NCBI GenBank assembly: GCA_037833965.1
Contig: AP031355.1
Span: forward strand, 30,467,501-30,531,500
Direction of reading: 5' to 3'
DNA from: Marchantia polymorpha subsp. ruderalis
Taxonomy: Eukaryota > Streptophyta > Marchantiopsida > Marchantiales > Marchantiaceae
Length of the DNA stretch: 64,000 nt
Shown here: in pieces, positions 25,295-64,000 of the stretch
Position numbering within the stretch: position 1 is the first letter of the stretch
Layout of the letters: every line of letters begins with the position of its first letter
Notes under the pieces: generated by a model
Databases searched by the model: none
What the model saw: only the letters and a program-made list of their open reading frames with translations
Told to the model about the DNA's origin: nothing
Translations under genes and position numbers: made by a program

Positions 25295-25329
25295 TGCAGG
25301 TGGTGTAGTGTTAGTTAGGACTTAGAAGG

Positions 25330-25335
25330 TATAAA
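25330..25335 (+). promoter_or_regulatory. LTR 1 TATA box
   Basis: TATAAA lies just after the ORF, followed by the hairpin CAAGGCGTCTTGCCTTG. The same arrangement occurs in every copy, marking the U3/R border and placing the ORF in U3. Confidence 0.65.
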
Positions 25336-29200: not shown

Positions 29201-29702
29201 AGAAGACGTAGGAGGAGAAGCGTTTGCACCATTGAAGGTGGTGTCACCACAAACGTCCACCGAGACAGTCATATTGGAGTCAAGCAAAGATCCTTTGACT
29301 GAAGAGGCACAGTCGCAAAGACTCAGTGCAGCCGACCTTCTGTGTGGGCAAGTGCTTCCGTTACTTTAGTACCTCGATCGTAAGTGGGAAAAGTATGCGG
29401 AAACTACCACCAACAGATCTTATGTGGAGCTACTGCGTAACAGGACGCGGGCAAAGGTGTTAGCGACTTCCGTAGCTGCACCTAAGGAATGGCAATACAA
29501 GGAGACAGAGTCCAAGTACGAGGTACTTCTGAAGAAATTAGCCGAAGAAGTCAAGAAGCGGAGGTATTTGGAGAAGGCTTGTGAGAGTCTTCGTGAGGAT
29601 GTTGAGAAGGTCAAGTGTGCAACACTGGATCTCTTGAGTAGGCTGGAGGCATCTCAAACCGCCTATAATGCTGAATTGTAGAGAGTGGATGAACTGACGG
29701 CA

Positions 29703-30505: not shown

Positions 30506-30512
30506 TTGTTTC

Positions 30513-30719: not shown

Positions 30720-30736
30720 AGGGACTGTGAAAAAGC

Positions 30737-35764: not shown

Positions 35765-37044
35765 CGGCAGGATCGGAGACGAAGGAACAAGAGCATGCAG
35801 TAGAGCTGGCAGCAAAGATGAAGGATTTGGCAGAGTGTAAAGCTGCTAGGATTTCAGACTTAGAATCTATCAATTCTAAGTCTGAAATTCAGCTGCAGAT
35901 TCAGTGCACTGAGTTGAGGTCACAACGGACGCACGCCGAGGAGCAGTTATGCAAGATGGAGACGAGATTGTCGCAGGCAGAAGAGAAGATCCGGCAGTTA
36001 TCAAAGCAGACGAATGACGCCTTGACTGTGAGGGTGAACCGATGCCTGGGTTTGTATTACAGTAGGTCGAGACGCATAAATGGTTGCAATTACGAGATCT
36101 TGAGCGCCGTGCGACGACAATAATGGCGAGTAGTGTTAGTGAGTAGCGCCGGTTAGCCAAGAAGTTGGACGCGTTTCTTACAAGTTAGTGCGACGCGGTG
36201 TTGAACTTGGAGTTGAAACTGGCGACTGTTGCAAAGGTTAGGTTTAGATCAAAAGTTAGAGGGAAAGACAACTGCCGACTCCGCAAATGTAGGACCTATT
36301 TTGAGCTCGCATCAGAGCAAGTGATAGTTTAGAGTTAGTTAGGAATAAAGAGGTCCAAGGCATTGGCCTTGAAGTACTTTTTTCGAATTTTGTTTCTCTC
36401 TATTTTGAAGTCTGCATTCTTCGGTCATCTATGTATTGAGTGTTTTGTCACCGCGCGAGAGGTACTTCGGTTTGTCGAAGATACTGCATCCGAGGTAGTA
36501 GCTCAATCCGAATGTTCTAAATAGCGATTAGCTGGAATTAGGATTTAAGCAAGTTTGCATTTGGCAGCTGCGTGCAGATTCTAAGTGTACTTTTTGGAAA
36601 TTTCCCCCCCTGAATACTAAGACAAGGTCGCGATCGACTTTTGTGATGCTGCATTTGAAAATTTCAGGAGTGATGTGTGTATTACGCTGCATCGCATGTC
36701 CTGTGAGTTGAACACCCGTAGTACTTCTGGGAGTGACAGTGGACCGAGAATTCGAACTCCCCAATAAACTGACATACGTGAAACTGAAATACGTGAGACT
36801 TAGTACGCTTTGTGTTGTTTCTGTACTCGAGGGATCGGATCTTTACCATTATGCTCCATTTTGATATTTATCTGTCATTACATTGATCTCAAAACCAACA
36901 GGTTGTCTCATGTAAATCTACTTCTCTAAATATACATAGAGAAAGTATGTAACCATATCCATCTGATCTATAACAAGATCAAATATCTCAACCACTACAC
37001 ATACCAGACAAATTGTAACATACTTAGCTATAGGTGAAAAAGTT

Positions 37045-41030: not shown

Positions 41031-41464
41031 ATTATTATTTATATATATTTGTTATATTATTGATTCATTTGAAGTAAATTGGATAATTTAAATATCATTT
41101 TATTAAAAAAAATATTAAACAGATATTTTTGAATAAAAAAGTATCATTTTTTGTGTTTTCATTTTAAAGATTTGTTTGATATCTTTAAAGAGATTTTTTT
41201 AATCTTTAGTGTTATATGAGAAAGTTGAATAAAGGAAGTAAAAAATAAATATCAAGAGCTCTTTGGTAACCCACTTTTTGTTTTTGTGCGAAATTTAAAA
41301 CATTTTTGGAAAACAGTACCGCAGCAGCCGTGTAAATAGGTAATCGGTACATTTAAATAGAGTGAAGATGGATAATCGCGGGTCTCGTATGATCTCGTAG
41401 AATCCAGGAGTTGGGCGCAATGTCCGGAACAAGCGCTCCGACCTGAACGATCAATTCTGAAAGG

Positions 41465-42060
41465 GATATCCTTCGGCGCAAGGCGCATAATCCGCCTTCG
41501 GCGCTAGGGAAATCCCTCAGAACTTATTTAATTCACAACGCCTTGACTTGGTTAGGGTCCCGTTGGAAAGAGCTTGACGCACCCAAGAACGCGTGGAACG
41601 GATGAGGAATCAAGGAGTTATGATTATCGGAAGATACGGAGAGAGAGAGCCTTCGGCGGAAGGGTTAGGTCGACGGACGAACCGCCTTTGGCCCAAGATG
41701 TTCGCCTTAGGGGGTGCACTTCTTCGTACGGCGCCTTCGGCCCAACGCCTTTGGCGGTACGGACATGTGCGCCTTCGGCGGAACAAAGCTCCGGCGGCGA
41801 AAGCGCCTTCGGGGGAACAAGAGGGATCGACAGACAGGACAAGACCCGTTGACTGCGGTCAACGCCTACGGCACAGTCGCCTTCGGCGCTGCGCCTTCAT
41901 CAATGCACCTTCGTCGACGGACGTCTTCACGAAGTCCGCCTTCGGCGCTGGGAGTCAACGCCTTCGGCGGTAGATGTTCGCCTTCGGCGCTGCGGGTCAA
42001 CGCCTTCGGCGGTGCGGGATAGATCAGAGTTGCGAGTCGGCCAGAGGCGGAAGCCTCCGC
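41465..42060 (+). repeat. CGCCTTCGGCG cluster, LTR 2 leader
   Basis: Many copies of CGCCTTCGGCG and one-base variants (CGCCTTTGGCG, CGCCTACGGC) occur at irregular spacing. Positions differ from those in the LTR 1 leader, which points to gain, loss or conversion since the copies split. Confidence 0.9.
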
Positions 42061-42507
42061 CGCCGCGCCTTTGGCGCTGCGCGAACACGGCCGCGGCGAA
42101 GTACGATGGCGGAAATCAAATTCAATTTTCGAGCGTGTGAGTCCGCGCAACGGCGGAGCGTGAAGCCGCGCGTGCGAGAGGAGGGCCATTACGCCTCCAA
42201 GCCGACGCAGCCATCAAGTGAGTCGACACTCACGACCAAGTGTCGACCATGAAATCTTGTGAGCCGAGGGCGGGCGACTCATTCTTGAATTTGCGATTTG
42301 CGATTTCTTGTGAGAGCTGCGCGCGCACACATACTGGCAGAGAGAAATCTGATAAGGCGACGTGCAGAGACTTGCATAGCAGAGGGAGAATTGAGTGCGC
42401 GACCGCAGGAATTGAGGGAGAGTAGAGTTTGCAGAGGAATCGCAGCCACGGGCAAGAAGCTTGGGCATAGCGGAGGAGAGTTTGCGAAATACGATTTCAA
42501 GAACGCA

Positions 42508-45152
42508 ATGGCGAAAGCAACTCAGCTGCGAATGATTCCGCTAAAGATTCCGCAGATTGGGCTACGCGCTTTCCAGCCCCAGCTATCTGCGGTGAAGCTC
42601 GATTTTCTCCTGTGGGGATGGAATTACGTGTGCCAGGACATGGTGCGCGAATGGCAGAAGGAGAGAGATCAACCTACGCGCGGGTTTCGACCGCACGTAG
42701 AGCGATGGACCATCCAAGATTGGTCACAGGTACTGGGAAGATGTGCGGGAGAAGACGAACATCTCATATTTGATAACGAGAGCATCAAGGTCACGAAGGA
42801 GGATTAGATTTCCTTTGCGACCATGTTCAAGAGTGCCAAGTCCAACAAGAATGGGTACAGGACACGGGACTACAAGGATCGCTACCGCAGAAATGTCGCG
42901 GTAGCACTTCTCCAACTCTTGCAACCGCACAAGACCACATACATCACTTCTTGGCAAGTGTCTTTCGTGGAGCTGGCGTTGGTCGGAGCTCCGATTTACT
43001 GGGCGCGCATCTTATGGAAGATAACGCGGCAGCATGCGTTTGAGGAGGAGGGGGATGAATCAATCACCTCTCTCCCTTCTTGATCAACTTTTATTGGTCG
43101 ATGGGTTGTCTAACCGCGACCGAGCGTGTTCAATTTCCACTGCTATCACTCAGCAATCCCGGGCAGTATGTGAAGGATGTCGAGGTTGACAACGACGAGG
43201 AAGAGACTCATGCCTCCACGCCACCAACTCAACAGAGTGCGGGAGGAGAATCATTCGCAGCGCGAGTGCCGTGGAAGCGGAGATGGAAGGGAGAAGCAGA
43301 GAAGGGTCAACATCGAGATTCGGCTGCTCTCAAACGGAAGCGACCACTGTAGGAGCTCTGCAGTCGGCCGAAGCAGAAAGCACGCATGCTCGTGTTGCCT
43401 GCAAGTAGCGCGGAGACAGGGCGTGCCGCCGGAGAGAAGGAGACATCATCCTCGGAGGACGATGGGAACACACGGGCGGCAGAGGGATCAGCAGACCTCT
43501 CTACGCTGAAGGCACGGATGCCTTCGGCGGAAGCAAGACGGCCTTCGGGCCAAGAGAGACGACACGCGGCACCGATGAATGTGTCGGCAACGGATAGGTG
43601 TTCCGCACGAGCAGCGTACGCGGACTCGCCTTCGGGGCTGGAGCCTTCGGCTCGAGCGCCTTCGCCGCAGTCGCCTTCGGCGCAGCGGAAGAAGGGAAAG
43701 GAGCCGGCTGAAGATGCGCCTTCGGCGCAAGGGCCTTCGGGCCAAGGAGTTGCGAGTAGGGAGCCTTCGGGGAAAGTGCCTTCGGCTCAAGGGCCTTCGG
43801 CCCAAGGGACTTCAGGCGAGCCGCCTTCGGCTCAACCGCCTTCGGCGGTAGACGTCGTCGGCACTACGGCTTCGGCAGAAGCGCCGCCGACAAATGCGCC
43901 TTCAGCGGAGGCACCTTTGGAGCAGGACCTAACAGAGGAGCGGAATGACAAGCAGAAGCGGGAAGCACAATTGCAATCCGCACAAACACCTTCGGCGGTG
44001 GACGCCTTTGGCGATGCGGAGTTGGTAGTGACAGGACGGGCAAGCGGTGCGAGCTTGTCACAACCAAAATCCCCCACCGCCTTAGACATTCTGGCCGGGA
44101 GCAGTGAGGCAGCAGCGGCAGCAGATGACGCAGACGCTACGAAGCCCAACTCACGAGAATCGCCAGAGAATTCATTGGCGATCGAAATCCTCGATTCGGA
44201 GGATGACGAAGAAGGAGAATCGGAATCGGGCGAGGAGGAGGAGCAATCGGTGGCAGGCACGCCGACGGCGGCACTTTGCGAGCAAGTGGTACCTCTACTG
44301 AGGTACCTCGATCGCAAGGTGACGAAGTATGCAGACCCCCGCCAGCCTGGGTCCTACGTCGAGTTAGTGCGCAGGCGGACTCGCACTAAAGTCCGCATCA
44401 GCAAGTTGTTGGCACGCCTAGACGGGGACATTAAAGATCTGCGGGAGAAGAATGAGTGCCTGCTGGGCCACATTGCTCTTACGCGGAAGGTGCACCAGGC
44501 CGTCGACAAGTTGCGCGATGAGAAGCTTGAAGAGGCGAAGAAGGAGTTCGCCAAGGAGAAAGCGAAGCTCGCAGATGAGCTGGATTCTGAGCAGACTCAA
44601 AATCAAATTTTGTCAGACGAGCTCGTGCGGCAGACACGGTTGCTGGAGCAGTGTCAGCTCTCACGCCAGGCGGATGAAGAGTTAATCCGTAAACTGCAAT
44701 CCGAGTGCGGGGAATTGAGAGCGCAGCGTGCGGATGCAGAGTTGCAGTTAGTGGTAGTTGAAGACGATCGCCGGCGGGAGGCAGATCGCACGAGAGAGGA
44801 GTTGGCGAGGCGAGTCAACCACTATCTCAGAGGTTACACCCTCTGGGAAGTGGCGGCGCAGGAGAAACTCACACTGCGCGAGTTAGAGCTTCGTGCGGCG
44901 GGTTTGATGTCGGGTGACAGTCGGAGCCGGCGGCGAGTGGCGAAGAAGTTAGATTTGTTTCTGTCAAGGTCGCGGGACGCCATGGCCACCCTCAAGTCGG
45001 AGGTTACTGCGGTGTTGCGGCGGCTGGGACTGCGCAGTCGAGCGGAAGACTGGTCGGGTAGGGAGTTAGTGCGCGGCAGTTCGTCGCGCAGAAGGCGAAG
45101 TACAGGATTTGCAGAGTGCAGCGGCGTAGCGTGGTTTCGTGCAGGTGTGTAG
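42508..45152 (+). pseudogene. LTR-encoded coiled-coil protein, broken copy (LTR 2)
   Basis: ATG at 42508 (MAKATQLRMIPLKI). The head is conserved up to a TAG at 42805-42807. The frame reopens (KNGYRTRDYKDRYRRN, WQVSFVELALVGAPIYWARI), shifts near 43055, and meets another TAG at 43350-43352 where LTR 1 has GAG. From 43386 a 588-codon stretch is open: a Pro/Ser/Ala-rich middle with PSAQGPSAQG-type repeats, an acidic patch (DSEDDEEGESESGEEEE), then LLRYLDRKVTKYADP, the coiled coil, and the end WFRAGV with TAG at 45150-45152. The C-terminal half is therefore uninterrupted while the head is broken. An upstream ATG at 42247 opens a short ORF before the main start. Confidence 0.78.
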
Positions 45153-45195
45153 GGCAGCGTAGTGTAATGTAGAGTGTTAGTTAGGACTTAGAGGG

Positions 45196-45201
45196 TATAA
45201 A
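45196..45201 (+). promoter_or_regulatory. LTR 2 TATA box
   Basis: GGTATAAAGTAGTTC followed by CAAGGCGTCTTGCCTTG, 43 bp after the ORF stop, as in LTR 1. Confidence 0.65.
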
Positions 45202-46177
45202 GTAGTTCAAGGCGTCTTGCCTTGGGATTCTTCCAGTTTTGGAAGTGCAGATCAGGAACTCATTTCTCTGCGTGTTTGTGTCCTTAGTTCTGTCACCACG
45301 CAAGAGGAGCTACAACTTGGCGATCCGCATTTTGTAGCTGAAGGCCTTCGGCCGAATGTTCAGAGCTAGTATACTGGTTAGAGACTTGAGTAGTTCGGAG
45401 CTACACCTGCGGATGATTGCCGATGCTCAGAGCTAGTAACTAGTTAGATACTTGAACAGTTCCTCCTTACACTTTTGACTGATTGTTCCTGATTGTACTC
45501 CTTCGGGATTTTTCCCCTGAATGCCAAAGTGAAGTTTTGTTACTTCGAGTAAGCCTTAGTTGTAATTCAGGTTACGTTGCAGCAGGTGCCTTCAGGACAA
45601 CCCCTGTAGTATTTATGGGAATGATAAGTGCCTAAGAATTCAAACTCGTCAATAGACTGTTATGGTGTGCTACTGGATCGTTTTTCAGTTGAGTCTCTCA
45701 GTTGTACCTGTGTTCTCTGCGCGTTTTGTGAGTTGAGAGTGTTGTTCACCGCGTGTGAGTGACTTTGATCCGAAGTAGGAAGTCCAAACCGGGTGCCCTG
45801 TGCTAGCAGAAACTAGTGGAAGGGTTGTAAAAGCCGGAGTGAGGAGTCACTACCTACAGATTCGTTGAGTGTACTCGCGAGAGACTTTCCCCCTGAAATC
45901 TTAAGTAGAGGTCCTAACCAATCTCTGAGTTGTGTTTCTATAGTTTCAAGTGTGTGTGTGTGTGTGGAGTGAACTACGCTGCACTGTGCGACCTCCAAGT
46001 GATCTCAGAGTGAGCACTTGCAGTATTTCTGGGAGTGACAGTCGCCTGAGAATTCAAACTCTTCAATAGTTTGTTAAACAAGACACTTTGTACTCTGTGT
46101 GTTGCCTGTGTCCTTGTGGGTTCGACCTTTTTGCTGCTATACTGCAGTTTTAGCCTTTGGTGGGTTATTACAAGCTC

Positions 46178-52517: not shown

Positions 52518-53446
52518 GTCACTGTAATAACCCACCAAAGGCTAAAACTGCAGTATGGTGGTAAAAAGATCGAACCCACAGGGACAGAGGCAACACACAG
52601 AGTAAAAGTGTCACGTTTAACAGACTTTTGTAGAGTTTGAATTCTAGGCGACTGTCACTCCCAGAAATACTGCAGTGCTCGACTCGGAGGCTCGACTCGG
52701 AGGAGGATCTCAACTCGGAGGATGCTCGGAGGATGCACGGTACAGCTTGGTAACTCAACACACACACACACACACACACACCTGAAACTGGCAAAAAGCA
52801 CAACTCGGAGGTCGGTCAGGACCTCCGCTTCGGATTTCAGGAGGAAAGTGTCTCGCAAGTTCACTCAGAGGTTCTGCAGGTAGTGCCTCCCACTCCGGCT
52901 TTTACGGCCCTTCCGCCAGGAACTAGCGGGGGTACCCGGACTGGACTTCCCACTTCGGAACGAAGCCTCTACATACGCCGTGGACGTCACCCTCGACTAT
53001 CACACCAAACGCAGGGAGTGCAGATCCGACTGAGAACTTACTGAAAACACGATCCAGTAACACACACACAACCTGAATTACAAACCAAGGCTTACACGAA
53101 GTAATGAAACTTCACATTGGCATTCAGGGGAAACTTCCCGTAGGAGTACAATCAGGATATGTCACTCAAAGGAGTAAGGGGGAACTGTTCAAGTATCTAA
53201 CTCGCAGCCGGCTCTGAGCATCAGAAATCACCCGCAGGTGCAGATCCGCACTACTCAAGTCTCTAACCGGGTGCTAGCTCTGAACATTCAGCCGAAGGCC
53301 TTCAACTACAACATACGGTAACTTCGCTATGCTGCAGCTTCTCTACGTGGTGCCAGGACCAAAATGCACAAACACGCCAAGAAAGTGAGTTCCTGATCTG
53401 CACTTCCGAAACTGGAAGAGTCCCAAGGCAAAACGCCTTGATCTAT

Positions 53447-53452
53447 TTTATA
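53447..53452 (-). promoter_or_regulatory. LTR 3 TATA box
   Basis: Minus-strand GGTATAAAATAG, 33 bp after the ORF stop, followed by CAAGGCG...TTGCCTTGG as in the other copies. Confidence 0.65.
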
Positions 53453-53485
53453 CCCTCAAAAGATCCTAACTAGCACTACGCTATC

Positions 53486-56041
53486 CTATCTACTACTCGC
53501 AGCATCTGCGCGAAACCAAACTACTCGACTGCACTCAGCAGATCCGGTGCTGCGCCTCCTGCGCGCCGGACTGCTCCGCTTACTATCTCTACCTTGCCAG
53601 TCTTCCGACCGGCTGCGTAACCCCAGGCGTCGGAGCGCTGTGGTGACTTCCGACTGCAAGTGCGCCATAGTGTCGCGCGCACCCGACAAGAAGGTTTCTA
53701 ATTTTCTCGCCACTCGCCGCCGACTCCGACTGTCACCTTCCGTCAGTGCCGCCGCCCGAAGCTCGAACTCCCTGAGTGTGATCCTCTCTTGAGCTGCCAC
53801 CTCCCAATGGGTGTATCCTTTTAGACAACGAGTCACCCGTGCCGCCAACTCTCCTCGCGCCCTGCAGCTGCTCTCCACCTCGGCCAACTGCATTTCTAAT
53901 CCCGCACGTTGTGCCCTCAAATCCGAGCACTCGGATTGCAAGTTGCACAACAACTCCTCATCCTCCTTGCGGGCCCTTTGACTTTCTTCTAAGGCGCGCG
54001 TCTGGCGCGCAAGCTCGGCTGCTAGGACTTTGTTCTGTCTCCGCTCCTCCTGCAGTTCCGACTCGATCTTTGCCCGAATTAGTTCGGCATCCGCCTGACT
54101 TTTCGTCGCCGCATCCTCCTTCTGCTGCTGCAAGGCTTGGTATAGCTTCTGGGTGACCGCCAGGTGTTGTCGGAGGGCGGTGTTCCTATCCACATATACT
54201 TGGCACCTAGAGGCCCACCTTGCCACCTTGCTCCTCGTCCTTCGCCTGATAGTCTCCACATAAGACTGCGGTTTTAAGGCACTTGCGTATTTGGATGTCT
54301 TGCGATCAAGATATCGCAGGAGTGGAACTATCTGTTCGCACAGCACCCCTGTTGGCGTTTTCTGCACCGAATCCTCTTCTTGCTCTTCCGAGCTCGTCTC
54401 ATCCTCAGTCTCGAGGATTTCAGTCGCCACCGAATCCCTTGGCGACTCCCTGGAACTGTGGCGCGCAGCAGCTTCCGCTGCGACTGCTGCTCCACTGCCT
54501 GCTAAAATATCCAGGGCAGTGGGAGATCCCACTGCTTGAGCCCCTGTTCCGGCTTGATCTTCGGTTTGTGAAGGGGTCGACGCCGCAGTGACTTTTGTCA
54601 CTCTTGATCCGCCCGCTTCTGCTGCCTGTCCTTCCGGCGCAATCTGCGCGGAAGGTGTCCTTGCTGAAGGTGCGTCCGCCGAAGGCGTCCGCACACTCGT
54701 CGTTGGCCCCATCCGTCTCGCAATCGGCGAATCCGGCTGACTCTCTGTTGTCCGACTCGCAGTCGGCCGACCAGCAGTTGTCCGACTGGGAGTCGGATAC
54801 ACCCTGCGCGTCTTGACTCCACTTGGCCTGCTTGTTGGTGGCGTTCTTCCAGAAGTGCCTTCCGCCGAAGACGACCCTTTGAGGATTGTTGGCTCGTCAG
54901 CCAAACTCTCTTCTGCTTCCGGCCTGCTGTCCGGTTCAACGCGCCGTTCAGTTGGCCTTCCTTCCGCTTGTCGACCTTCAGTCATCCGACTCGCAGTCGG
55001 CCGGCTGTCAGTCCGTCCATCTCCTCCCGAAGGCCGTGGTGCCTTCTGTGCAGAGGTTTCTGCCGTCTTCCCTAGAATCTGAGCGATTATCTCTTCCTGT
55101 GTGAGATTCCGCCGGGTCGGAGTTCGCCTGGTCTCCTCAGTAACAGTTGGCATTTTGCGTGCTCTCTGTTTTGGTCGACTGTGAGGCTCGGGGGTGGGCC
55201 GACCACGAGTCGGCGCAGCTGGCACTTCCGGCTGCCTGTCCTCAGGTCTCTCATCCCACTTCCGCTTTCGCGGAATGCGCTCACTTCGACGTTCTTCTGC
55301 TGCTCTTGCTGGAGCCGGAGCCGGAGGCGTACTGGCAGGTTCCTCGTCCGGATCCGTGTCTACTTCGGCCTTCCTCGAATATCTACCTGGATAAGTCCGG
55401 GTCAGCTGCGGAAACCGAGTTTTCTCAGCATTCGTCAAACATCCCATCGCCCGGTAAAACACGATTAAGTAAGGCGATAGATGATTGAGTGTTCCTCCCC
55501 TCTCTTCTTGCGCATGTTGGCGCGTCACCTTCCACAGGAGCCGTGCCCAATGCACCGGAGCTCCTGACAACACTAGCTCCACAAACTCTACCTGCCAACC
55601 ATGCATGTAAGCGGTCTTGGTCGGCTGCAATATCTGCAGCAATGCCGTCGCGACATTTCTCCGCAATCGATCCTTGTAATCCCGTGTCCGGAAACCGTTC
55701 TTGGGATGTCTAGCCACCTTGAAGAGCTCATTGTAAGAGACTTCTTCCTCCTGGGACACCTTCACGCTGTCGGCCTCGAAGAGGAGATCCCCTTCCTCGC
55801 CGGCACACCTGCCCAACACCTGCGCCCAATTGCAAATGTCCCATCTCTCTGGGTGTGGGCGAAATCCGCGAGAAGGCTTGTGTCTCTCTTGCAGATACTC
55901 GCGCACCATCTCCGGACATGTCCAATTCCACCCCCATAGGAGAAAATCGAGCTTCAGCCTCAACAGCACATCTTGAAATGCGCGTAGACCGATCTGCGGC
56001 ACCCTGAGTGGAGACACTCGCAGCTGGGGAACCTTCGACAT
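53486..56041 (-). CDS. LTR-encoded coiled-coil protein, intact, 851 residues (LTR 3)
   Basis: ATG at 56041, at the start conserved in all copies (MSKVPQLRVSPLRVPQIGLR); the frame is open to a stop at 53486. Residues 1-~235 are the conserved head (LDFLLWGWNWTCPEMVREYL, GRCAGEEGDLLF, KNGFRTRDYKDRLRRN, WQVEFVELVLSGAPVHWARL, HLSPYLIVFYRAMGCLT). A basic motif (IPRKRKWDE) is near 255. Residues ~280-560 are Pro/Ser/Thr/Arg-rich low complexity. LLRYLDRKTSKYA near 575 begins a coiled coil to ~740. The tail is Arg-rich (SRSRRRVARKLE). I see no zinc knuckle, protease, RT or transposase motif, and the family is unknown. The gene is in U3, 3' of pol and the polypurine tract. A self-associating structural or nuclear accessory protein is a guess. 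Confidence 0.8.
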   Translation of the reverse strand: MSKVPQLRVSPLRVPQIGLRAFQDVLLRLKLDFLLWGWNWTCPEMVREYLQERHKPSRGFRPHPERWDICNWAQVLGRCAGEEGDLLFEADSVKVSQEEEVSYNELFKVARHPKNGFRTRDYKDRLRRNVATALLQILQPTKTAYMHGWQVEFVELVLSGAPVHWARLLWKVTRQHAQEERGGTLNHLSPYLIVFYRAMGCLTNAEKTRFPQLTRTYPGRYSRKAEVDTDPDEEPASTPPAPAPARAAEERRSERIPRKRKWDERPEDRQPEVPAAPTRGRPTPEPHSRPKQRARKMPTVTEETRRTPTRRNLTQEEIIAQILGKTAETSAQKAPRPSGGDGRTDSRPTASRMTEGRQAEGRPTERRVEPDSRPEAEESLADEPTILKGSSSAEGTSGRTPPTSRPSGVKTRRVYPTPSRTTAGRPTASRTTESQPDSPIARRMGPTTSVRTPSADAPSARTPSAQIAPEGQAAEAGGSRVTKVTAASTPSQTEDQAGTGAQAVGSPTALDILAGSGAAVAAEAAARHSSRESPRDSVATEILETEDETSSEEQEEDSVQKTPTGVLCEQIVPLLRYLDRKTSKYASALKPQSYVETIRRRTRSKVARWASRCQVYVDRNTALRQHLAVTQKLYQALQQQKEDAATKSQADAELIRAKIESELQEERRQNKVLAAELARQTRALEESQRARKEDEELLCNLQSECSDLRAQRAGLEMQLAEVESSCRARGELAARVTRCLKGYTHWEVAAQERITLREFELRAAALTEGDSRSRRRVARKLETFLSGARDTMAHLQSEVTTALRRLGLRSRSEDWQGRDSKRSSPARRRRSTGSAECSRVVWFRADAASSR
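54650..55240. repeat. CCGACTCGCAGTCGG palindrome-like repeats, LTR 3 ORF
   Basis: Near-palindromic copies (CCGACTCGCAGTCGG; CCGACTGGGAGTCGG; CCGACCACGAGTCGG; CCGACTCTCT-type partials) are scattered through the low-complexity part of the ORF. CGCCTTCGGCG, the word that dominates LTRs 1 and 2, is nearly absent from this ORF. On the coding strand the repeats read as Arg/Pro/Thr/Ser combinations such as PTASR and TTxSQ. Confidence 0.75.
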
Positions 56042-57299
56042 TGCGTTGCCTGCACACACAAACGTTCTCCCTTTCGCTCGCTCTCTCACAATCGCCACTG
56101 CGCGTCGGTCACTCAAGCACTGACTGCTCACTCTCTCTGCGCTCGTTCAAGATCGCTACTCACAATTCTTTCAAGGTCCGCCAAGATCCTTGCGCAACTC
56201 GTCTCCGCACTCTCTACTCTCACTGCAGGTCGCTCCGCCCTTGCGCGCAATCTTGGGACTGGAAATCGCAAAGTCAAGAATGAGAGAATGAGACTGGAGC
56301 GCAGTCTTTTCTTCTCCGATTTCAAGAACGTCCAACGTTCTTACTGGTTGCAACGTACGCAGCCGGCTATACGGCTTAACGGTTCGCCCTTTGCATGCGC
56401 GAATTCACGTCTCCGCATTGCGCGCATTCGCATGCTTAAACGTTGAATTCTCCCGCCGCCGCCACCTTCCGGACTCGAGTCTGCTGCAGGGTATACGTCG
56501 GCCCTGTTGTCTTTTCCTAACCCGCCCTTCTCCGGAGGCGTGTCGTCGCTGGTGCGTTCATTATCCGTCGGCGCCTTGCTGGAGGCGCACATCCAGCCGG
56601 AGCGAATTACGCCGGCGCGCAGTCGTACCGCCTATTTTGTCTTTTATGCATCGTCCGTTGCTGCCGGCGCATATCCGTCAGCGCAACTCATGCCAGCGCA
56701 TCCGGCCGTCAGCGCCACGTCGGAGGCGTACATCCGACCGGTGCTTTCCTTCCATGAACAGCCGCCAAAGGCGCTTCCGACTCTGAGTTGGTTTCCTCCT
56801 GTGGTACCCCACTTTTGGCAATTTTGAGGAAATTAAAACATTTTTGGAAAACTGTACCTTGGCAACATTGTAAATAGCCTCCGGTACATCAAAACAGAGT
56901 GAATCCGGAAGATCGCGGGGATTCTCGAGGGATCTTGTAGAATCTGGGATTTGGGGTGCCGCAGTAAGGACAGGCACCACCCTCCTTGCGAGCTCCGCAG
57001 TTAGGATCTCTACGGCGCAAGGCGCAAAACCCGCCTTCGGAGGTTGCGTCCGCGGCTGTAGGGGAACCCTCCATAATTAGGTCAACCCTCGGGCGCCTTG
57101 ACCAAGTTAGGATCCCGTTGGAAAGAGCTCGACGCGCTGATTCCAACGAGCCCAAGAACGCTTGGAACGGACGAGGACTTAGGGAGTTATCGCTACTGGA
57201 AGAAACGGAGGCGGTCGCCTGCGGCGGAAGGAGTTCGCCACCGGCGCGAATTCCGCCTACGCGGAAGGGGGAATCAAGTTTTGTCCTATGCGCGGACGA

Positions 57300-57765
57300 A
57301 GGCGTTCGCCTGTGCACAGGCGAAGTAGGGTTAGGGAAGGCGCGAAGTCCGCCTACGCACAGGCGTTCGCCTGTGCACAGGCACTTCGGCGTCGGCGGAA
57401 AATCCGCCTTGGGCCCTAGAAATGCGCCTTGTGAGGTAGAAAGTGTACGGCGCCTTCCGCGCCAGCGCGGCGCCGCGTACGTCGGAAGAGCCGCCAGAGT
57501 AATCCAATCGGTACGGACCATGCGGACGGCACGGGTGGATGCGCTCTTGGACGGACGGAGTTGCGGCGGCGGAAGCGCCGACGGAGAGACAAGGAACGGA
57601 CAGACTGGACGGAGACGGCTGACCACGGTCAACGCCTTCCGCGCCAGCGCAGCGCCGCGGACGGAATTCGCCTGCGCACAGGCGAACGCCTGTGCACAGG
57701 AGGATGTTCAAGTTCCGCACCGGCGGAGAATCCGCCGAGGCTCCTGCCTGCGCACAGGCAGGAGT
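57300..57765 (+). repeat. GCCTGTGCACAGGC palindromes, LTR 4 leader
   Basis: Perfect 14-bp palindromes lie at 57308-57321 and 57369-57382. One-base variants with TGCGCA lie at 57670-57683 and 57746-57759, the latter inside a longer near-palindrome flanked by CTCCT and AGGAG. A truncated copy is at 57688-57700. CGCCTTCGGCG-type words are also present but fewer than in LTRs 1 and 2. Confidence 0.92.
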
Positions 57766-58046
57766 TGAATTTTTGTCCGACATGCGGGCACACGCGTCAA
57801 GGCAGAGGGGGATTGGCCGAGGGGCGGTACGAGCAAGTGTACCGCACAAGGCGGAAAACTCGCCTTCGGCGCTACGCCCCCATGTCCACAGGGTGACACG
57901 CTCGCGGAGTTCAAATCCGCCAATTCGAGCGTGAGAGTTTAATCGACGACGGCGGAGCGTGAAGCCGCGCGTGAGAGCGAAGACCGTTCCAGCGTACAGC
58001 CGGCGCGGCCATCAAGTGAGACGTTCTTCACGACCAAGAGCCGACC

Positions 58047-61000
58047 ATGACCTTCGACCGGGCGGCGGAGAACGTCCCATTCTTGAATTCGCGATTCCAA
58101 TCTCTTGTGCGCGCTGCGCGCATCCATCTGCTGGCTGCGGAACACTCTCGACGTCGTCGCACAGGAGATTTCTTGTTGATTGAGGGAGAAGTGAGGGCGC
58201 GTGATTTGGAATTGAGAGCGATTAGAGTTTGCCGAGAGAGAAAGAAACGCGGGCAGTGCAGAAGTAGAATGAGCGGGCGAGCGAACCCCAGAAACGCAAT
58301 GACGAGACCGAGCAGATTGCGGATGGTGCCACTTCGCCTGCCGCAGAACGGGCTGCGCGCTTTCGAGGAGCGCTTAATAGCAAGAAAGCTCGATTTCTTG
58401 CTATGGGGATGGAATTACATCTGTGCGAATATGGTGCGCGAGTGGCTAGAGCCACAGGGACCACCCTCGCGCGGATTGCGTCCGCATGTTGATCGGTGGA
58501 CAGTCCAAGATTGGGCGCAGGCGTTGGGAAGATGTGCTGGCATGCCCGGGCATCTCCTTTTTGACAGTGAGAGCATCAAGGTGACCAAGCAAGAAGAGGC
58601 GCAATTTGTGGAGCTGTTCAAGACCGGGAGGTCAACCAAGAATGGGTACAGGACCCGTGATTACAAGGATCGATTTCGCCGGACTTTGTCCGCGGCGCTG
58701 ATGCAATTACTGCAGCCGCACCGCGCCTGCTACATCACATTGTGGCAGGTCTCTTTTGTGGAGTGCGTCATCGAGGGAACTCCAATTCACTGGGCGAGCA
58801 TCCTGCACAGGGTGATGCGACAGCACGCGTTTGAGGAGAAGGGGGGAACTCTAAACCATCTTTCTCCTTTCCTCATCAATTTTTATCGACAGCGGAATTG
58901 TTTGACAGCGGCGGAGCTTGAACATTTTCCGCCATTGTCCATTGACCATCCCGGGAAGTATGTGCGGGAGAACGAGGTCGACACTGATGCAGAGGAGTCA
59001 CCGACTTCGACCCCATCAAGACGGAGGGACGAAGGGAGACACACCCCTGCAGCGCGAGTGCCGCGGAAGCGGCGATGGAGGGAAGAGTCCGAAGAGGAGC
59101 AGCATCAAGAACCCTCTGCTCCCATTCGACCGCGGCCGCTGTGCGAGCCATACAGCCGGCCGAAGCAGAAGGCACGCAGACTGGTGTTACCAGCTGACAG
59201 TGCGGACACGGCGACAATTGCGACGGAGATAGGAAGTGCGTCGCCAGAGAGGCGAGAGGAAGCGCGGACGACCGCAGGAGCGACGGGCCACGCTGCAACC
59301 TCGTCGGGAGAGAGGCCGCCTACGGACCAAGGGCCTCCGGAGTTACCACGTGCGATGCGGACAGATGTTCCGTTTGCGCACAGGCGAACCTCCGCGGACG
59401 GACGAGCCTCCGCGGACCGGCGAACACAAGTGGACGTGGATCTACGCTTACGCGTGGGAAGGAGCAGTCCGCCTGTGCACAGGCGCTCACCTGTGCACAG
59501 GTCGCCTGTGCACAGGACACCTCCACACGTGCCGCCTGTGCACAGGCAAGAATCACCCCCGTTCCAACGGAGGAAGGGGAAGGAGCCGGCGGAAGAACCG
59601 CCTACGAGACACCGGCCCTCGGGGCCAGACCCTCCGGCGCACCACGCGCCGCAATTTGCGCCTTCAGCGCCAGGGCCTTCGAGCCGAGGAGATACGAGCA
59701 GGGAGCGTGCGGAGGCCGCACCATCGGCGGGAAGTCCGCCGATAGATGCGCCTTCGGCGGTAGGGCCTATAGGCCAAGGAACATCGGACGTGCGGCCCCC
59801 GGTCATGTCGCCTTCGGCGATAGATGTCCGCGGCGCTACGCCTGCGGCGGACAAGGCGCCGGCAAATGCGCCTGCGCACGGGCCGGGCACAGCCCCCACG
59901 GACCGATCAAGGGAGCAGCAGACGGAGGAGCGGAGTGACTGTCCGCGGGATGAAATCTCGATGCGCGATGCGCAATCCAACCCCGCGCAGCCACCCTCCG
60001 CTCGATCGCCTTCGGCGACGGACGACGGCGACAGAGAGAACGCGGTAGACCATCAACAAGCGAGAGACGGGGATGCCGCACGGGTACATTCGCCTTCCGC
60101 CTTAGACATTTTGGCGACGAGCAGCGAGGTTGCAGCCGTGCCTTCGCAGGCAGCACACGTCGACGACGTGCAGCCCCACTCAGGGCAGTCGCCGACGCAA
60201 TCAATGGCGACTGAAATTCTCCACTCGGATGATGACGACGGAGGCTCCACGGAAGAAATGTCAGGAGCAGAAGACACTGAGGAGGAGGAGGAGGAAATTG
60301 TTGGAGCGCCGGCGGCGGCGCTCTCTGAGCAGGTGATTCCGTTGCTGCGGTACTTGGATCGCAAGGTCGATAAATACGCCGACCCACTCCAGCCGGGATC
60401 TTACATCGAGTTAGTGCGGAGGCGGACTCGCACTAAAGTCCACACCAGCAAGCTATTAGCTAGAGTGGACCAGGAGTTGAGGGACTTGAAGGAGAAGCAG
60501 GAGTGCTTGTGGGGTCAGTACAAGCTTAATCAGAAATTCTACAAGCACACCGAGAAGATGAAGGATGAGAAACTGGGCGAGCTCACCAAGGAGCAGGTGA
60601 AGGTCAAGGAAGCACTCAACTCTGAGCAGGCCCAGAATCGGATTTTGTCAGAGGAGCTCGTGCGACAGACGCGGTTGTTGGAACAATGTCAGCTCGCACG
60701 GCAGGCGGATGAAGAGTTAATCCGCAGGTTACAGTCAGAGTGTGGCGAATTGAGAGCGCAACGTGCTGAAGCCGAATCGCAATTAGTGATAATTGAAGAG
60801 GATCGCAGGAAGGAGGCGGATCGCACGAAGGTGGAGACGGCGAGGCGAGTCGCCCACTGTCTCAAGGGCTACGCCCACTGGGAAGTGAAGGCGCAGGAGA
60901 AACTCACACTGCGTGAGTTTGAATTGCGCGCAGCCGGGTTGTTGTCAGGCGACAGTAGGAGTCGGCGGAAGGTAGCGAAGAAGCTTGAAGCCTTTCTGTC

Positions 61001-61184
61001 GAAGGCACAGGATACCATGTCCGCCCTCGAGGGGGAGGTGTCCGCGGCGTTGCAGCGGTTGGGACTGCGCAGTCGAGCGGAAGAGTGGCAGGGTAGGGAG
61101 TTAGTGCGCGGCAGTCGGCCGCGCAGGAGACGTAGTACAGGTTCCGCGGAGTGTAGTGTAGCGTGGTTCCGTGCAGGCGTGTAG
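58047..61184 (+). CDS. LTR-encoded coiled-coil protein, intact, 1045 residues (LTR 4)
   Basis: Open from ATG 58047 to TAG 61182-61184. The start shared with other copies is the ATG at 58299 (MTRPSRLRMVPLRLPQNGLR), giving 961 residues. The extra 84 codons correspond to a short upstream ORF that ends in stops in LTRs 1 and 2 but is fused in frame here. Head at ~85-330 (LDFLLWGWNYICANMVREWL, GRCAGMPGHLLF, NGYRTRDYKDRFRR, GTPIHWASIL, HLSPFLINFY); basic motif PRKRRWREE near 336; low-complexity Pro/Ser/Ala with PVHR repeats ~410-725; acidic patch; LLRYLDRKVDKYADP near 763; coiled coil ~808-950; Arg-rich tail ending WFRAGV. No known catalytic domain is visible. The long open frame despite a GC-rich repetitive middle suggests recent or ongoing selection. 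Confidence 0.8.
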   Translation: MTFDRAAENVPFLNSRFQSLVRAARIHLLAAEHSRRRRTGDFLLIEGEVRARDLELRAIRVCRERKKRGQCRSRMSGRANPRNAMTRPSRLRMVPLRLPQNGLRAFEERLIARKLDFLLWGWNYICANMVREWLEPQGPPSRGLRPHVDRWTVQDWAQALGRCAGMPGHLLFDSESIKVTKQEEAQFVELFKTGRSTKNGYRTRDYKDRFRRTLSAALMQLLQPHRACYITLWQVSFVECVIEGTPIHWASILHRVMRQHAFEEKGGTLNHLSPFLINFYRQRNCLTAAELEHFPPLSIDHPGKYVRENEVDTDAEESPTSTPSRRRDEGRHTPAARVPRKRRWREESEEEQHQEPSAPIRPRPLCEPYSRPKQKARRLVLPADSADTATIATEIGSASPERREEARTTAGATGHAATSSGERPPTDQGPPELPRAMRTDVPFAHRRTSADGRASADRRTQVDVDLRLRVGRSSPPVHRRSPVHRSPVHRTPPHVPPVHRQESPPFQRRKGKEPAEEPPTRHRPSGPDPPAHHAPQFAPSAPGPSSRGDTSRERAEAAPSAGSPPIDAPSAVGPIGQGTSDVRPPVMSPSAIDVRGATPAADKAPANAPAHGPGTAPTDRSREQQTEERSDCPRDEISMRDAQSNPAQPPSARSPSATDDGDRENAVDHQQARDGDAARVHSPSALDILATSSEVAAVPSQAAHVDDVQPHSGQSPTQSMATEILHSDDDDGGSTEEMSGAEDTEEEEEEIVGAPAAALSEQVIPLLRYLDRKVDKYADPLQPGSYIELVRRRTRTKVHTSKLLARVDQELRDLKEKQECLWGQYKLNQKFYKHTEKMKDEKLGELTKEQVKVKEALNSEQAQNRILSEELVRQTRLLEQCQLARQADEELIRRLQSECGELRAQRAEAESQLVIIEEDRRKEADRTKVETARRVAHCLKGYAHWEVKAQEKLTLREFELRAAGLLSGDSRSRRKVAKKLEAFLSKAQDTMSALEGEVSAALQRLGLRSRAEEWQGRELVRGSRPRRRRSTGSAECSVAWFRAGV
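59465..59550 (+). repeat. GCCTGTGCACAGGC palindromes inside the LTR 4 ORF
   Basis: Four copies in 77 bp: 59471-59484 and 59534-59547 (perfect), 59489-59502 (ACCTGTGCACAGGT, also perfect) and 59504-59516 (one end changed). All are in the frame CCT GTG CAC AGG (Pro-Val-His-Arg), so the protein carries a PVHR run absent from the other copies. Confidence 0.93.
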
Positions 61185-61230
61185 TGTAGTGTAGCGTAGT
61201 GCAGTGTAGTGTTAGGTAGGACTTAGAAGG

Positions 61231-61236
61231 TATAAA
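61231..61236 (+). promoter_or_regulatory. LTR 4 TATA box
   Basis: GGTATAAAATAG, 46 bp after the ORF stop, followed by CAGGCGTTTTGCCTGG, a hairpin with compensating changes relative to CAAGGC...GCCTTG in LTRs 1 and 2. Confidence 0.65.
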
Positions 61237-62523
61237 ATAGTTCCAGGCGTTTTGCCTGGGGTTCTTTCCCATCAGAAGTGCCGATCAGGAACCCATTTCC
61301 TTTGCGTGTTTGTGTCCTTGAGTTCTGTCACCACGCACGAGGAGTTACAACTTAGCGTTCCGCATTTTGTAGCTGAAGGCCTTCGGCCGAATGTTCAGAG
61401 CTAGTACATTGGTTAGAGACTTGAGTAGTTCGGATCTGCACCTGCGGGTGACTGCCGATGCTCAGAGCCAGTGACTAGTTAGATACTTGAACAGTTTCGC
61501 CCCTACACCTTCGAGTGTTTCTTTCTGATTGTACTCCTTGGGATTTTTCCCCTGAATGCCAAAGTGAAGTTTTGCTACTTCGTGTAAGCCTTGGTTGTAA
61601 ATTCAGGTTACGCTGCAGCAGGTGCCTTGAGGGTAACCCCTGTAGTATTTCTGGGAATGACAAGTGCCTAAGAATTCAAACTCTTCAATAGACTGTTATT
61701 GTGTTACTGGAATGTTTCTCAGTGAGTCCTTCAGTGCGGACCTGTGTTCTCTGCGCGTTTTGTGAGTTGAGAGTGTTGTTCACCGCGTCTGAGTGACTTC
61801 GATCCGAAGTAGGCAGTCCAAACCGGGTTTCCTACACTAGCAGCAAGCTAGTGGAAGTGTTGTAAAAGCCGGAGTTGGAAGTCACTACCCGCAGCTTCGC
61901 AGAGTGTACTCTTGAGAGACTTTCCCCCTGAAATCTTGAAGTAGAGGTCCTAACGGATCTCTGGGTTGTGTTTCTGTAGTTTCAGGTGTGTGTGTGTGTG
62001 TGTGTGTTACGCTGCACTGTGCGACCTCCGAGTGCGCTCCGAGTGGACACTTGCAGTATTTCTGGGAGTGACAGTCGCCTGAGAATTCAAACTCATCAAT
62101 AGTCTGTTAAACGTGACACTTTGTACCCTGTGTGTTCCTCTGTCCCTGTGGGTTCGACCTTTCTACCACTATATTGCAGTTTTAGCCTTTAGTGGGTTAT
62201 TACACCTCCTATGAGCGCGTGATTCCGCCGAAGGCGCATCGCCGAGGGCGTACGGGAATCCTTTCCGGCTGTGAACCCTAGCGCGAACGGCGCATGTCCG
62301 GCTACGAGTTTTCCGACGCTCATAACTTCTCCATTCCTGATCCATCTCCGACGCTCTTGGACTCGTTAGAACGAGCGTCCCGAGCTCTTTCTAATGCAAC
62401 TTCAACCAACTGGATCTACCGTGTATCCCGATTGTTATGAAGGTTTTCCCTTTCCGCGCTAGCGGCGCTTCGCCGAAGGCGCACTCATGGTCGGATGCCT
62501 TTAGAGGTCCGGGCCCTTCTCCT

Positions 62524-62647
62524 GACGTCTTTAGCAAAACCTCCTCCTGAGGTGTCTGCGCCGGAAGCGTAGCTTCCTTATACGCTAGAGGCGCGTGAGT
62601 AGAGACACCTCAGAAAAGGAGCTTTTGCCGAAGGCGCCGAAGACGTT
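62524..62647. repeat. Large inverted repeat in the LTR 3 5' part
   Basis: CTGAGGTGTCT (62547-62557) is an exact inverse of AGACACCTCAG (62603-62613). Outside it, ACGTCTTTAGCAAAACCTCC pairs imperfectly with GGAGCTTTTGC...GAAGACGT. Inside it, GGAAGCGTAGCTTCC is a further hairpin. RNA or single-stranded DNA from here could form a long branched stem. Confidence 0.8.
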
Positions 62648-62809
62648 GGCGTTGGTACATCCGACTACGTGATTCTTTGTGTCCTCGTGACGATCTCATC
62701 AATCCACTCTATTTAGCGTACCCTTCTCTAGCTACAAACACTGCTTTGGTACTAGTTTTCTAAAATTGTTTAAATTCTGCAAAAAAAACAAAAAGTGTGT
62801 TACCACATG

Positions 62810-62820
62810 CCCCCCTCCTC
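62810..62820 (-). other. Polypurine tract of the giant-LTR Ty3 element
   Basis: Minus-strand GAGGAGGGGGG, then CA, then the LTR start TGTGGTAAC. This is the only polypurine tract seen next to a giant LTR and is the key evidence that the ~5-kb unit is an LTR. Confidence 0.85.
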
Positions 62821-62844
62821 AATTGTGAGCGCCCACGCGAACAT

Positions 62845-64000
62845 TTACACGTGGTATTTCTTCAGACGCCATCCGTTCACGCGGGTGCCTAACCATTCTC
62901 CCGTCAGTTCTGCGAGTTGGATGGATCCATTTGGGAAAACTTCTATCACCTTGTAAGGTCCCATCCACCTCAAGTGGAGCTTGCCTGGAAATCTAGCATG
63001 TCTGCTATCGTATAGCAGAGCCAAGTCGCCCTTCTCCAGCAGTACTGGTTTGAGCCTTCGATCGTACTTCTCCTTCCGCCTGAGTTGTAATTGCTTTGTT
63101 CGATCTTCGGCCTCTTGACGTCTTTCCTCCAGTGCCATTACCTCTTGCAGTCGATATGCCTGACTCTCCTCCGCGTCCAGCCGTCTCTGATCTAAGGTCC
63201 TCTTGGTAGGTATCTCGAATTCGATGGGTAAAATCGGATGCTGCCCATAAACTAGAAAGTAAGGTGTTTGCCTGGTGGTGACTTTTTCTGCCGTTCTATA
63301 TGCCCATAAGGCGGCCGGTAGCTTGGTGTCCCAGTCATGAGCATGATTTACAGTCACTTTGAGGAGTATCTTACAGAGTAATCCATTGGACTTCTCTGTC
63401 AGACCATTTGCCTTGGGGTTGTATGGAGTAGTCTTCCGATGCTTAATCTGAAAGTGCCGCGTCAAACTCTCTATCACCTGATTCAGAAAGTGCGTTCCCC
63501 TGTCACTGACTATTTCTAGGGGGCACCCGTAGCGTGTGATGATTGATTCGAATAGGAACCGTGCTACTGCGGCTGCGTCGTCGTGCCTTGTGGCCTCTGC
63601 CTCCACCATCTTGGTCGCATAGTCTGTTGCTATCAATATGTAGCGCCTGCGCGTGCCTTTAGTGACAGGTTGTATTGGTCCCACGAAGTCGATCCCCCAT
63701 TTTTCAAATGGTGCCAATGGCATGATTGGTGTGAGAGGCCATCTCGTGGTCGGAGTCGGCCTTCCCTTCCTCTGGCAGCTGTCGCATTTGCGAACGTAGT
63801 CGTGTACATCTTTGAACATCGTCGGCCACCAGTATCCTGCATTCACAATTTTGGTCACTGTATTTCTGGTGGCGTAGTGACCACCAGCGTCTTCTGTGTG
63901 CATGGCTTTGACAACTCGCGGGACTTCAGACTCCTCTAGACATCTGCACAGCCTTTCGTCTGCCATTTTCTTGAACAAGACCCCCTGTTGAAGCTGGTAA
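62845..64000 (-). CDS. pol: Ty3 integrase, C-terminal end of Pol, partial
   Basis: The frame is open from the window edge to TAA at 62845-62847 (at least 384 codons). An HHCC finger is visible (H-x3-GGHYATRNT region, then CDSCQRKG). The catalytic core has the first Asp in WGIDFVGP, the second in SDRGTHFLN and the Glu in NGLTEKSNG, the D,D,E set of integrases. Beyond it a C-terminal domain has LRWMGPYKVIEVFPNGSIQL and ends NGWRLKKYHV, as in non-chromoviral plant Ty3 lineages of the Athila/Tat kind; there is no chromodomain. No premature stop occurs in the visible part. RT, RNase H, protease and gag should lie beyond 64000. Tat and Ogre relatives are known for very long LTRs and extra ORFs, which fits, but lineage assignment needs RT. 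Confidence 0.9.
   Translation of the reverse strand, partial: YQLQQGVLFKKMADERLCRCLEESEVPRVVKAMHTEDAGGHYATRNTVTKIVNAGYWWPTMFKDVHDYVRKCDSCQRKGRPTPTTRWPLTPIMPLAPFEKWGIDFVGPIQPVTKGTRRRYILIATDYATKMVEAEATRHDDAAAVARFLFESIITRYGCPLEIVSDRGTHFLNQVIESLTRHFQIKHRKTTPYNPKANGLTEKSNGLLCKILLKVTVNHAHDWDTKLPAALWAYRTAEKVTTRQTPYFLVYGQHPILPIEFEIPTKRTLDQRRLDAEESQAYRLQEVMALEERRQEAEDRTKQLQLRRKEKYDRRLKPVLLEKGDLALLYDSRHARFPGKLHLRWMGPYKVIEVFPNGSIQLAELTGEWLGTRVNGWRLKKYHV

What the first reader, a model, noticed from the sequence alone, without database searches (positions are those of the whole stretch)
52523..64000. A Ty3 retrotransposon whose ~4.9-kb LTR carries an intact 851-codon gene in U3
Integrase, polypurine tract and the start of the repeated ~5-kb unit are contiguous on the minus strand, so the unit is an LTR. 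Its long ORF ends just before a TATA box and so lies in U3, 3' of pol. Genomic RNA would carry it at its 3' end, and it would be duplicated into both LTRs at each insertion. Mouse mammary tumour virus has a U3 gene, but a large coiled-coil protein in a plant LTR is not something I know as described.
Basis: partly seen in the sequence, partly recalled or inferred. Interest (0 to 1): 0.92.

Follow-up and report, generated by a model that had tools for sequence, protein, structure and literature searches.

The report
Retrotransposon with a gene inside its LTR
A family of mobile elements in a liverwort carries a large, selectively conserved protein gene inside its long terminal repeats, so that each insertion, and even a leftover single repeat, can bring a copy of that gene with it.

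Summary
Confirmed, with corrections. The minus-strand unit at 62807-62205 / 56799-52523 is the 3' LTR (about 4.87 kb) of a Ty3 element: pol stop, polypurine tract and TG...CA ends in order. The 5' LTR lies past the window (L009, 4873 bp, 99.2% identical), with gag and pol ORFs between. A second, plus-strand solo LTR (56800-62204, CCTCC duplications) splits it and carries its own 1045-codon version of the gene. Elsewhere a complete element has two identical 5391-bp LTRs, CTGCT duplications and the gene in both. No short-LTR relative appeared in the loci held. A PPT|LTR pattern occurs 1235 times genome-wide. The ORF ends 33-46 nt before a TATA box, so it lies in U3. It is coding: dN/dS 0.15-0.23 in its N-terminal part against 0.95-1.31 in shifted frames. 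Two decayed relics (about 43% identity) also have it between LTR ends. Named homologues were all Marchantia polymorpha; no Pfam family over its cut-off, no PDB match. One element has the same stop in both LTRs. Function is inferred: probably a nuclear accessory protein acting in trans. New variant of a known kind.

The parts
62848..63999 (-). 3' end of pol: integrase (H2C2 zinc finger + rve core), continues beyond the window into L009
   Evidence: Pfam PF17921 3.6e-14, PF00665 4.2e-14; no chromodomain matched
62808..62820 (-). polypurine tract GAGGAGGGGGGCA directly before the 3' LTR
   Evidence: PPT|TGTGGTA pattern 1235 times in the genome at <=2 mismatches, 0 for the reversed control
62205..62807 (-). 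3' LTR, first piece (start of U3, TGTGGTAACAC...), up to the nested insertion
   Evidence: 99.5% to the 5' LTR in L009
52523..56799 (-). 3' LTR, second piece, ends ...GGGTTATTACA; followed by GTGAC
   Evidence: 99.2% to the 5' LTR in L009
53486..56131 (-). U3 ORF, lineage C: 881 codons from GTG, 851 from ATG at 56041
   Evidence: same ORF in the 5' LTR (L009 5761-8427)
53443..53452 (-). TATA box of the LTR promoter, 33 nt after the ORF stop
   Evidence: motif reading; promoter activity not tested
56800..62204 (+). nested solo LTR, lineage D, 5405 bp, TG...CA, inserted into the 3' LTR above
58047..61184 (+). U3 ORF of lineage D, 1045 codons; TATA at 61231, 46 nt after the stop
   Evidence: 50% aa identity to the lineage C ORF over 824 aligned codons
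56795..56799 (.). target-site duplication CCTCC, left copy
62205..62209 (.). target-site duplication CCTCC, right copy
41262..46172 (+). older solo LTR, lineage B, AGCTC on both sides, ORF broken (588-aa fragment 43386-45152)
21232..26314 (+). older solo LTR, lineage A, flanks AGCCC/AGCAC, ORF broken
27438..29702 (+). decayed LTR, lineage E, first piece with remains of the U3 ORF (27988-28629 at 43% aa identity); split by another LTR element at 29703-35764
35765..36882 (+). decayed LTR, lineage E, second piece with U5 homology, ends CATTACA

Best explanation
Shown: the repeated unit is the LTR of a Ty3-type retrotransposon family, almost surely of Marchantia polymorpha. U3 (about 4.0-4.5 kb, taking the start of R as shortly after the TATA box) holds a sense-strand gene of about 850-1045 codons that ends just before the core promoter; R and U5 follow. 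Gene order is gag-protease, pol, PPT, [1.2 kb, ORF, TATA, R, U5]. The protein has a conserved N-terminal part of about 235 residues, a P/S/T/A-rich middle and a basic, heptad-rich C-terminal part, and its sequence has been under purifying selection. Inferred: it is an accessory factor of the kind plant elements usually encode between pol and the 3' LTR, acting in the nucleus in trans on the element's own copies (against silencing, or in nuclear import or targeting of the integration complex). It is made either from a spliced subgenomic RNA started in the 5' LTR or from a promoter in the first 1.2 kb of U3. The simplest origin is that use of a PPT immediately after pol moved the LTR boundary upstream, so that an ordinary pol-aORF-promoter order became LTR. 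A consequence is that solo LTRs can remain complete gene copies.
For: LTR identity: paired copies with gag and pol ORFs between. The C3 element has LTRs of 5391 bp, 100% identical, CTGCT both sides. Perfect 5-bp duplications around five LTRs without a PPT or PBS beside them: window D, window B, L021, L022, and F (L010:6623 to L031:176). U3 position: ORF stop to TATA 33 and 46 nt. Coding and selected: NG86 dN/dS N-terminal 0.15-0.23 in all 6 pairs of A-D, C-terminal 0.14-0.33 in the 5 pairs where dS was finite, middle 0.43-0.54; shifted frames, tested on 2 pairs, 0.95-1.31. Old architecture: relics E and F, about 43% N-terminal identity, lie between LTR-like ends. Abundance: 1235 PPT|LTR pattern matches. 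Accessory-type protein: basic clusters, best 19-residue mean hydropathy 1.22; likeness in place and general make-up to aORF proteins (PMC7264820, PMC6317226, PMC11728184).
Against: No transcript, protein or localisation data. No family over its cut-off and no fold match; AlphaFold confidence poor (pLDDT 55 and 46). The C2 element shares one stop codon in both LTRs, so it moved without an intact ORF of its own, or the LTRs were converted: this fits action in trans but also dispensability. A splice-acceptor-like CAG before the ATG is in lineages C and D but not A and B. The PPT-shift origin is untested. The heptad count had no control.
Confidence: 0.6

Rival explanations
1. The ORF is kept for its DNA or RNA: a GC-rich U3 with promoter or packaging function that happens to stay open.
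For: GC is 53-61% in most of the LTR stretches, which makes long chance ORFs likelier, and antisense ORFs up to 291 aa exist. In pairs with C or D, R-U5 is more conserved than the ORF (8.7-20% against 23-59% differences per codon position), so nucleotide-level constraint is real in the LTR.
Against: Codon-position bias and dN/dS specific to one frame; protein likeness still seen at 43% identity in relics.
Confidence: 0.05
2. The protein is a structural or Gag-like helper that particles need, and its place in the LTR is incidental.
For: It diverges about as fast as gag: pN between lineages C and D is 0.26 for gag-protease and 0.30 for the U3 N-terminal part (dS saturated for gag).
Against: The C3 element has a gag with capsid and zinc-knuckle matches of its own; no Gag or zinc-knuckle family was matched by the U3 protein.
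Confidence: 0.15
3. An envelope-like protein, as in Athila and SIRE elements.
For: Sense orientation 3' of pol, the usual place for env-like ORFs (PMC7264820, parts 1-2 of 3 read).
Against: No transmembrane-like stretch: best 19-residue mean hydropathy 1.22 (C) and 1.14 (D); no Pfam family over its cut-off.
Confidence: 0.05
4. The ORF is dispensable for transposition and is kept because it helps solo LTRs or the host.
For: The C2 element carries the same stop in both LTRs; many annotated Marchantia gene models match the U3 ORF (whether each lies in an LTR was not checked).
Against: 9 of 14 lineage D and 6 of 6 lineage C copies with the whole ORF region in one locus are stop-free (copies mostly chosen as best matches, so biased to young ones; further incomplete C copies in L015 and L018 are interrupted); selection is seen in all 6 lineage pairs.
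Confidence: 0.15

Closest known systems
Plant LTR retrotransposons with additional ORFs (aORF/eORF): Athila, Retand, Grande, Ogre, Tekay (PMC7264820 parts 1-2 of 3; PMC6317226 passages and section 13; PMC11963269 and PMC11728184 passages)
   Same: Extra protein gene 3' of pol in most of them, long LTRs in many non-chromoviruses, 5-bp duplications, tRNA-Asp among the primers of non-chromoviruses; disorder, helical coils, SMC-like domain or nuclear signals reported for several of the proteins
   Different: There the ORF lies in the internal region, between pol and the 3' LTR (often antisense) or before gag; here it lies wholly inside U3 and so occurs twice per element and in solo LTRs. No Transposase_28, Transposase_32, plant mobile domain or Athila ORF-1 among the families matched by the 35 members scanned
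Mouse mammary tumour virus sag (seen in search listings only; gene position and size recalled)
   Same: A protein gene in U3 of the LTR, at the 3' end of genomic RNA, duplicated into both LTRs
   Different: Vertebrate retrovirus with env; unrelated, smaller protein acting on T cells (recalled)
Rice Retrosat2/RIRE3/RIRE8 with ORF0 (PMC3485330, passages read)
   Same: Ty3 element with LTRs of about 3 kb or more and an extra ORF of unknown function
   Different: ORF0 is upstream of gag-pol, outside the LTR; counted among Tekay elements in PMC11728184

Membership tests
LTR retrotransposon (Ty3 superfamily) | two direct LTRs with TG...CA ends around gag-pol | tested here: met
   window/L009 and L012/L013 elements
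LTR retrotransposon (Ty3 superfamily) | protease, RT, RNase H, integrase in that order | tested here: met
   L012 943-aa gag-protease ORF, then L013 RT-RNaseH-IN ORF
LTR retrotransposon (Ty3 superfamily) | target-site duplication of 4-6 bp | tested here: met
   CTGCT on the C3 element; five solo LTRs with perfect duplications; not met for the window element itself, GGAAA against GTGAC
LTR retrotransposon (Ty3 superfamily) | PBS next to the 5' LTR | tested here: inconclusive
   TGGCGCCG[C/T]TGCC, which I recall as a tRNA-Asp complement, starts 22 nt after the LTR end at 7 of 7 junctions; usual place is adjacent (PMC6317226); ARAGORN found no tRNA in the 20 sources scanned to check against
Athila clade (non-chromovirus OTA) | no chromodomain, no second RNase H | tested here: met
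   Pfam scans of IN and of RT to IN: two RNase H models on one overlapping stretch, no chromodomain; the stretch between protease and RT was not scanned
Athila clade (non-chromovirus OTA) | position in RT/RNase H/IN trees | not tested
   no reference sequences fetched
Athila clade (non-chromovirus OTA) | Athila ORF-1 or Transposase_32 type extra protein | tested here: not met
   neither is among the 9 families matched by any of 35 members at E<=1; PF20167 search of the genome silent, but it rang in no control either. PMC6317226 reports Athila ORF-1 in only 16% of Athila elements, so this does not exclude the clade
U3-encoded retroviral gene (as MMTV sag) | ORF inside U3, present in both LTRs | tested here: met
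   start of R not mapped
U3-encoded retroviral gene (as MMTV sag) | homology to superantigen | tested here: not met
   no superantigen family among the Pfam matches, no PDB match

The most novel reading that the evidence does not exclude
The LTR itself is the replicating gene: by holding a trans-acting protein in U3, the family turns solo LTRs, normally dead relics, into lasting sources of the factor that keeps the family active, so that elements with a broken ORF are still mobilised. Selection would then act on the LTR pool rather than on single elements.
Probability: 0.3. Interest if true: 0.85.

Novelty: new variant of a known kind. Interest (0 to 1): 0.72.

Why it matters
LTRs are treated as regulatory, non-coding repeats; annotation and dating methods lean on that, and solo LTRs are counted as dead. 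A selected protein gene of about 100 kDa in the LTR of a family with over a thousand PPT|LTR pattern matches in a model liverwort would break that assumption, would explain many 'hypothetical proteins' in the Marchantia gene sets, and makes the old question of what plant accessory ORFs do testable, because the gene occurs without gag or pol in natural solo LTRs.

Full report
What is in the window. The window is G000:C6:30467501-30531500 of a 241-Mb genome in 9 contigs. Named homologues of the ORF are all from Marchantia polymorpha, so I take the host to be that liverwort. On the minus strand the integrase ORF ends with TAA at 62845; 24 nt on comes GAGGAGGGGGGCA (62808-62820) and then TGTGGTAACACAC, the start of the repeated unit. 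The unit runs 62807-62205, is broken by an insertion, and goes on 56799-52523, ending GGGTTATTACA.

The insertion is a second LTR. 56800-62204, plus strand, runs TGTGGTACCCCA...GGGTTATTACA, 5405 bp, with CCTCC on both sides and no PPT or PBS beside it: a solo LTR of a related lineage. I call the split minus-strand LTR lineage C and the insert lineage D. Two older solo LTRs, B (41262-46172, AGCTC both sides) and A (21232-26314, AGCCC/AGCAC), lie in the same window.

Is it an LTR? Past the window end, L009 holds the matching 5' LTR (minus strand 9670 to 4798, 4873 bp; 99.2% over 4274 bp and 99.5% over 603 bp). Between lie a gag region, split in this copy into ORFs of 175 and 703 aa (zinc knuckle matched in the longer one, the Retrotrans_gag domain in neither), and a 595-aa pol ORF running into the integrase. 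A complete element on C3 (L012/L013) has two 5391-bp LTRs without a single difference, CTGCT on both outer sides, a 943-aa gag-protease ORF (Retrotrans_gag 1.2e-12, zinc knuckle 1e-9, aspartyl protease 5e-5) and an RT-RNaseH-integrase ORF. Four pairs among the 40 integrase copies listed lie about 10.65 kb apart, and four PPT matches on C2 lie 11.18 kb apart, which is what tandem chains sharing LTRs would give; L028 is one LTR with a PPT before it and a PBS after it. With no limit on length, 8 of 12 PPT|LTR starts in the loci have an LTR-end pattern downstream in the same locus: 4858-5393 bp in seven, 10285 in the window because of the nested insert; in the other 4 none was found in the locus. 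Of 7 LTR-end|PBS junctions, 5 have a start in the locus, 4794-5391 bp away. The 20-base PPT|LTR pattern occurs 1235 times in the genome with up to 2 mismatches, 0 times reversed. A search with 1 kb of lineage D gave 2803 first-look candidates, 40 of them scored, each 98-100% identical, plus 40 short secondary matches at 76-80%.

Against it.

Where the ORF lies. Lineage C: stop TAG, 33 nt, then TATAAAATAG; lineage D: 46 nt. LTR start to the first ATG is 1247 nt in D. The ORF therefore fills the 3' part of U3 up to the core promoter. The transcription start itself was not mapped.

Is it a gene? Lineages C and D share 50% of residues over 824 aligned codons. Differences by codon position 1/2/3 for A against B are 139/951, 107/953, 221/950 (chi-square p = 2e-12), and position 3 > 1 > 2 in the other pairs too. 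Nei-Gojobori dN/dS over the six pairs of A, B, C, D: N-terminal 235 codons 0.15-0.23; C-terminal part 0.14-0.33 in five pairs, dS saturated in C-D; middle 0.43-0.54. Read one or two bases out of frame, A-B and D-A (the two pairs tested) give 0.95-1.31. Several dS values are above 1 and rough; A-B (dS 0.28-0.50) is the cleanest and gives 0.23, 0.43 and 0.33. Intact copies: of those with the whole ORF region in one locus, 9 of 14 in lineage D (L018 and L019 among them look like duplicates of one copy) and 6 of 6 in lineage C are stop-free; A, B and the relics E and F are not. Partial copies cut by locus ends or other insertions were left out; among these, lineage C remains in L015 and L018 are interrupted. 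The loci were mostly chosen as best matches, so they are biased to young copies. Four of the 100 listed PPT matches were fetched: three have an intact lineage C ORF in their own LTR, and the fourth LTR is cut by another, inverted copy with an intact ORF.

How old is the arrangement? Two decayed copies with about 43% N-terminal identity were found. E (window 27438-29702 and 35765-36882) starts TGTGGTAGTGCAG, is split by another LTR element, and ends CATTACA (flanks TTGAC/TTGAT; a second similar end lies at 37140). F (L010:6623 to L031:176, 3554 bp) starts TGTGGTACC, ends TTGTTACA and has ATGTT on both sides. Both have remains of the ORF's N- and C-terminal parts upstream of U5-like sequence. 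So the gene was probably in the LTR before these lineages parted.

What is the protein? Three parts: a basic N-terminal part of 235 residues with 15 positions conserved in 90% or more of 35 sequences, a middle with 43-48% P+S+T+A, and a basic C-terminal part rich in E, K, R, Q and L with up to 9 (C) or 10 (D) of 12 heptad a/d sites hydrophobic, no control run; no transmembrane-like stretch. No Pfam family over its cut-off, none recurring in more than 2 of 35 relatives, no NCBIfam or PDB relative. AlphaFold models are mostly helical and of low confidence.

How it may work. Shown: gene order and selection. Inferred: a nuclear accessory protein acting in trans. Support for trans: the element on C2 (L014/L015) has the same in-frame stop in the ORF of both LTRs, whose common 3824 bp are 99.9% identical. 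U3 is present once in a genomic RNA, so both LTRs were copied from one template and the stop was probably there before it moved; gene conversion between the LTRs is the alternative. The same fact fits dispensability. Between lineages C and D the U3 N-terminal part differs at nonsynonymous sites about as much as gag-protease (pN 0.30 and 0.26) and far more than integrase (0.075); dS is saturated for the last two. Expression could come from a promoter in the first 1.2 kb of U3 or from splicing out of the 5' leader; neither is tested, and the acceptor-like CAG before the ATG is absent from A and B.

Origin. In Athila-type elements the sense aORF lies between pol and the 3' LTR (PMC7264820). Here the PPT comes straight after pol and the ORF after it. 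A move of the plus-strand priming site to just behind pol would turn such an aORF into U3 in one round of reverse transcription. This is inference from order only.

What is known. [quoted passage not shown] A sunflower Athila and a Tekay aORF protein are predicted to be nuclear (PMC11728184, passages); Retrosat2 ORF0 lies upstream of gag-pol (PMC3485330, passages). Passages seen from liverwort and moss papers (PMC9985172, PMC7466625) mention no coding LTR. Searches of the held open-access library showed, as far as listings and the passages opened go, no plant case of an ORF inside an LTR; MMTV is the recurring one. Subscription papers are mostly not held, so this is no proof of absence from print.

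Verdict. The observation and the core reading are right: a plant Ty3 family whose LTR contains a selected protein gene in U3. As a Ty3 element it is ordinary; the place of the gene is what is new. Function stays open.

Noticed in passing
L009, L012, L015, L017, L021, L024, L028 (5' LTR ends): The tRNA-Asp-like PBS sequence starts exactly 22 nt after the LTR end at 7 of 7 junctions, with a nearly identical spacer in lineages C and D. It is normally adjacent, so either integrase trims 22 nt or the true primer is another one.
   Followed up: partly
window 61231-61270 and 53452-53410; L009 5727-5690: A small hairpin directly after the TATA box (CCAGGC-GTTTT-GCCTGG in D, CAAGGC...GCCTTG in C) seems to keep pairing through changes on both sides between lineages (read by eye).
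   Followed up: no
window 61240-62204 and other LTRs: R-U5 (about 970 nt) differs by 9-20% in pairs with lineage C or D whose U3 ORF differs by 23-59% per codon position; no Rfam family matches. A conserved leader RNA function is likely.
   Followed up: partly
L012 about 9626: In the C3 element gag-protease and pol are in the same frame, separated by a single stop codon, as if pol were reached by stop-codon read-through or splicing.
   Followed up: no
L018 / L019 (C9:16.10 Mb and 16.03 Mb): Two copies about 76 kb apart lie in inverted orientation with similar nesting and the same 1048-codon variant, which looks like an inverted segmental duplication.
   Followed up: no
window 29703-35764: Another Ty3 element (direct repeats 98% identical over 420 nt, flanked by CGGCA) is nested in relic LTR E; a relative of it flanks the C3 element in L012/L013.
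   Followed up: partly
P0015 (MARPO_0006s0274): A public Marchantia gene model fuses part of the U3 ORF with gag, so LTR ORFs have entered host gene sets.
   Followed up: no
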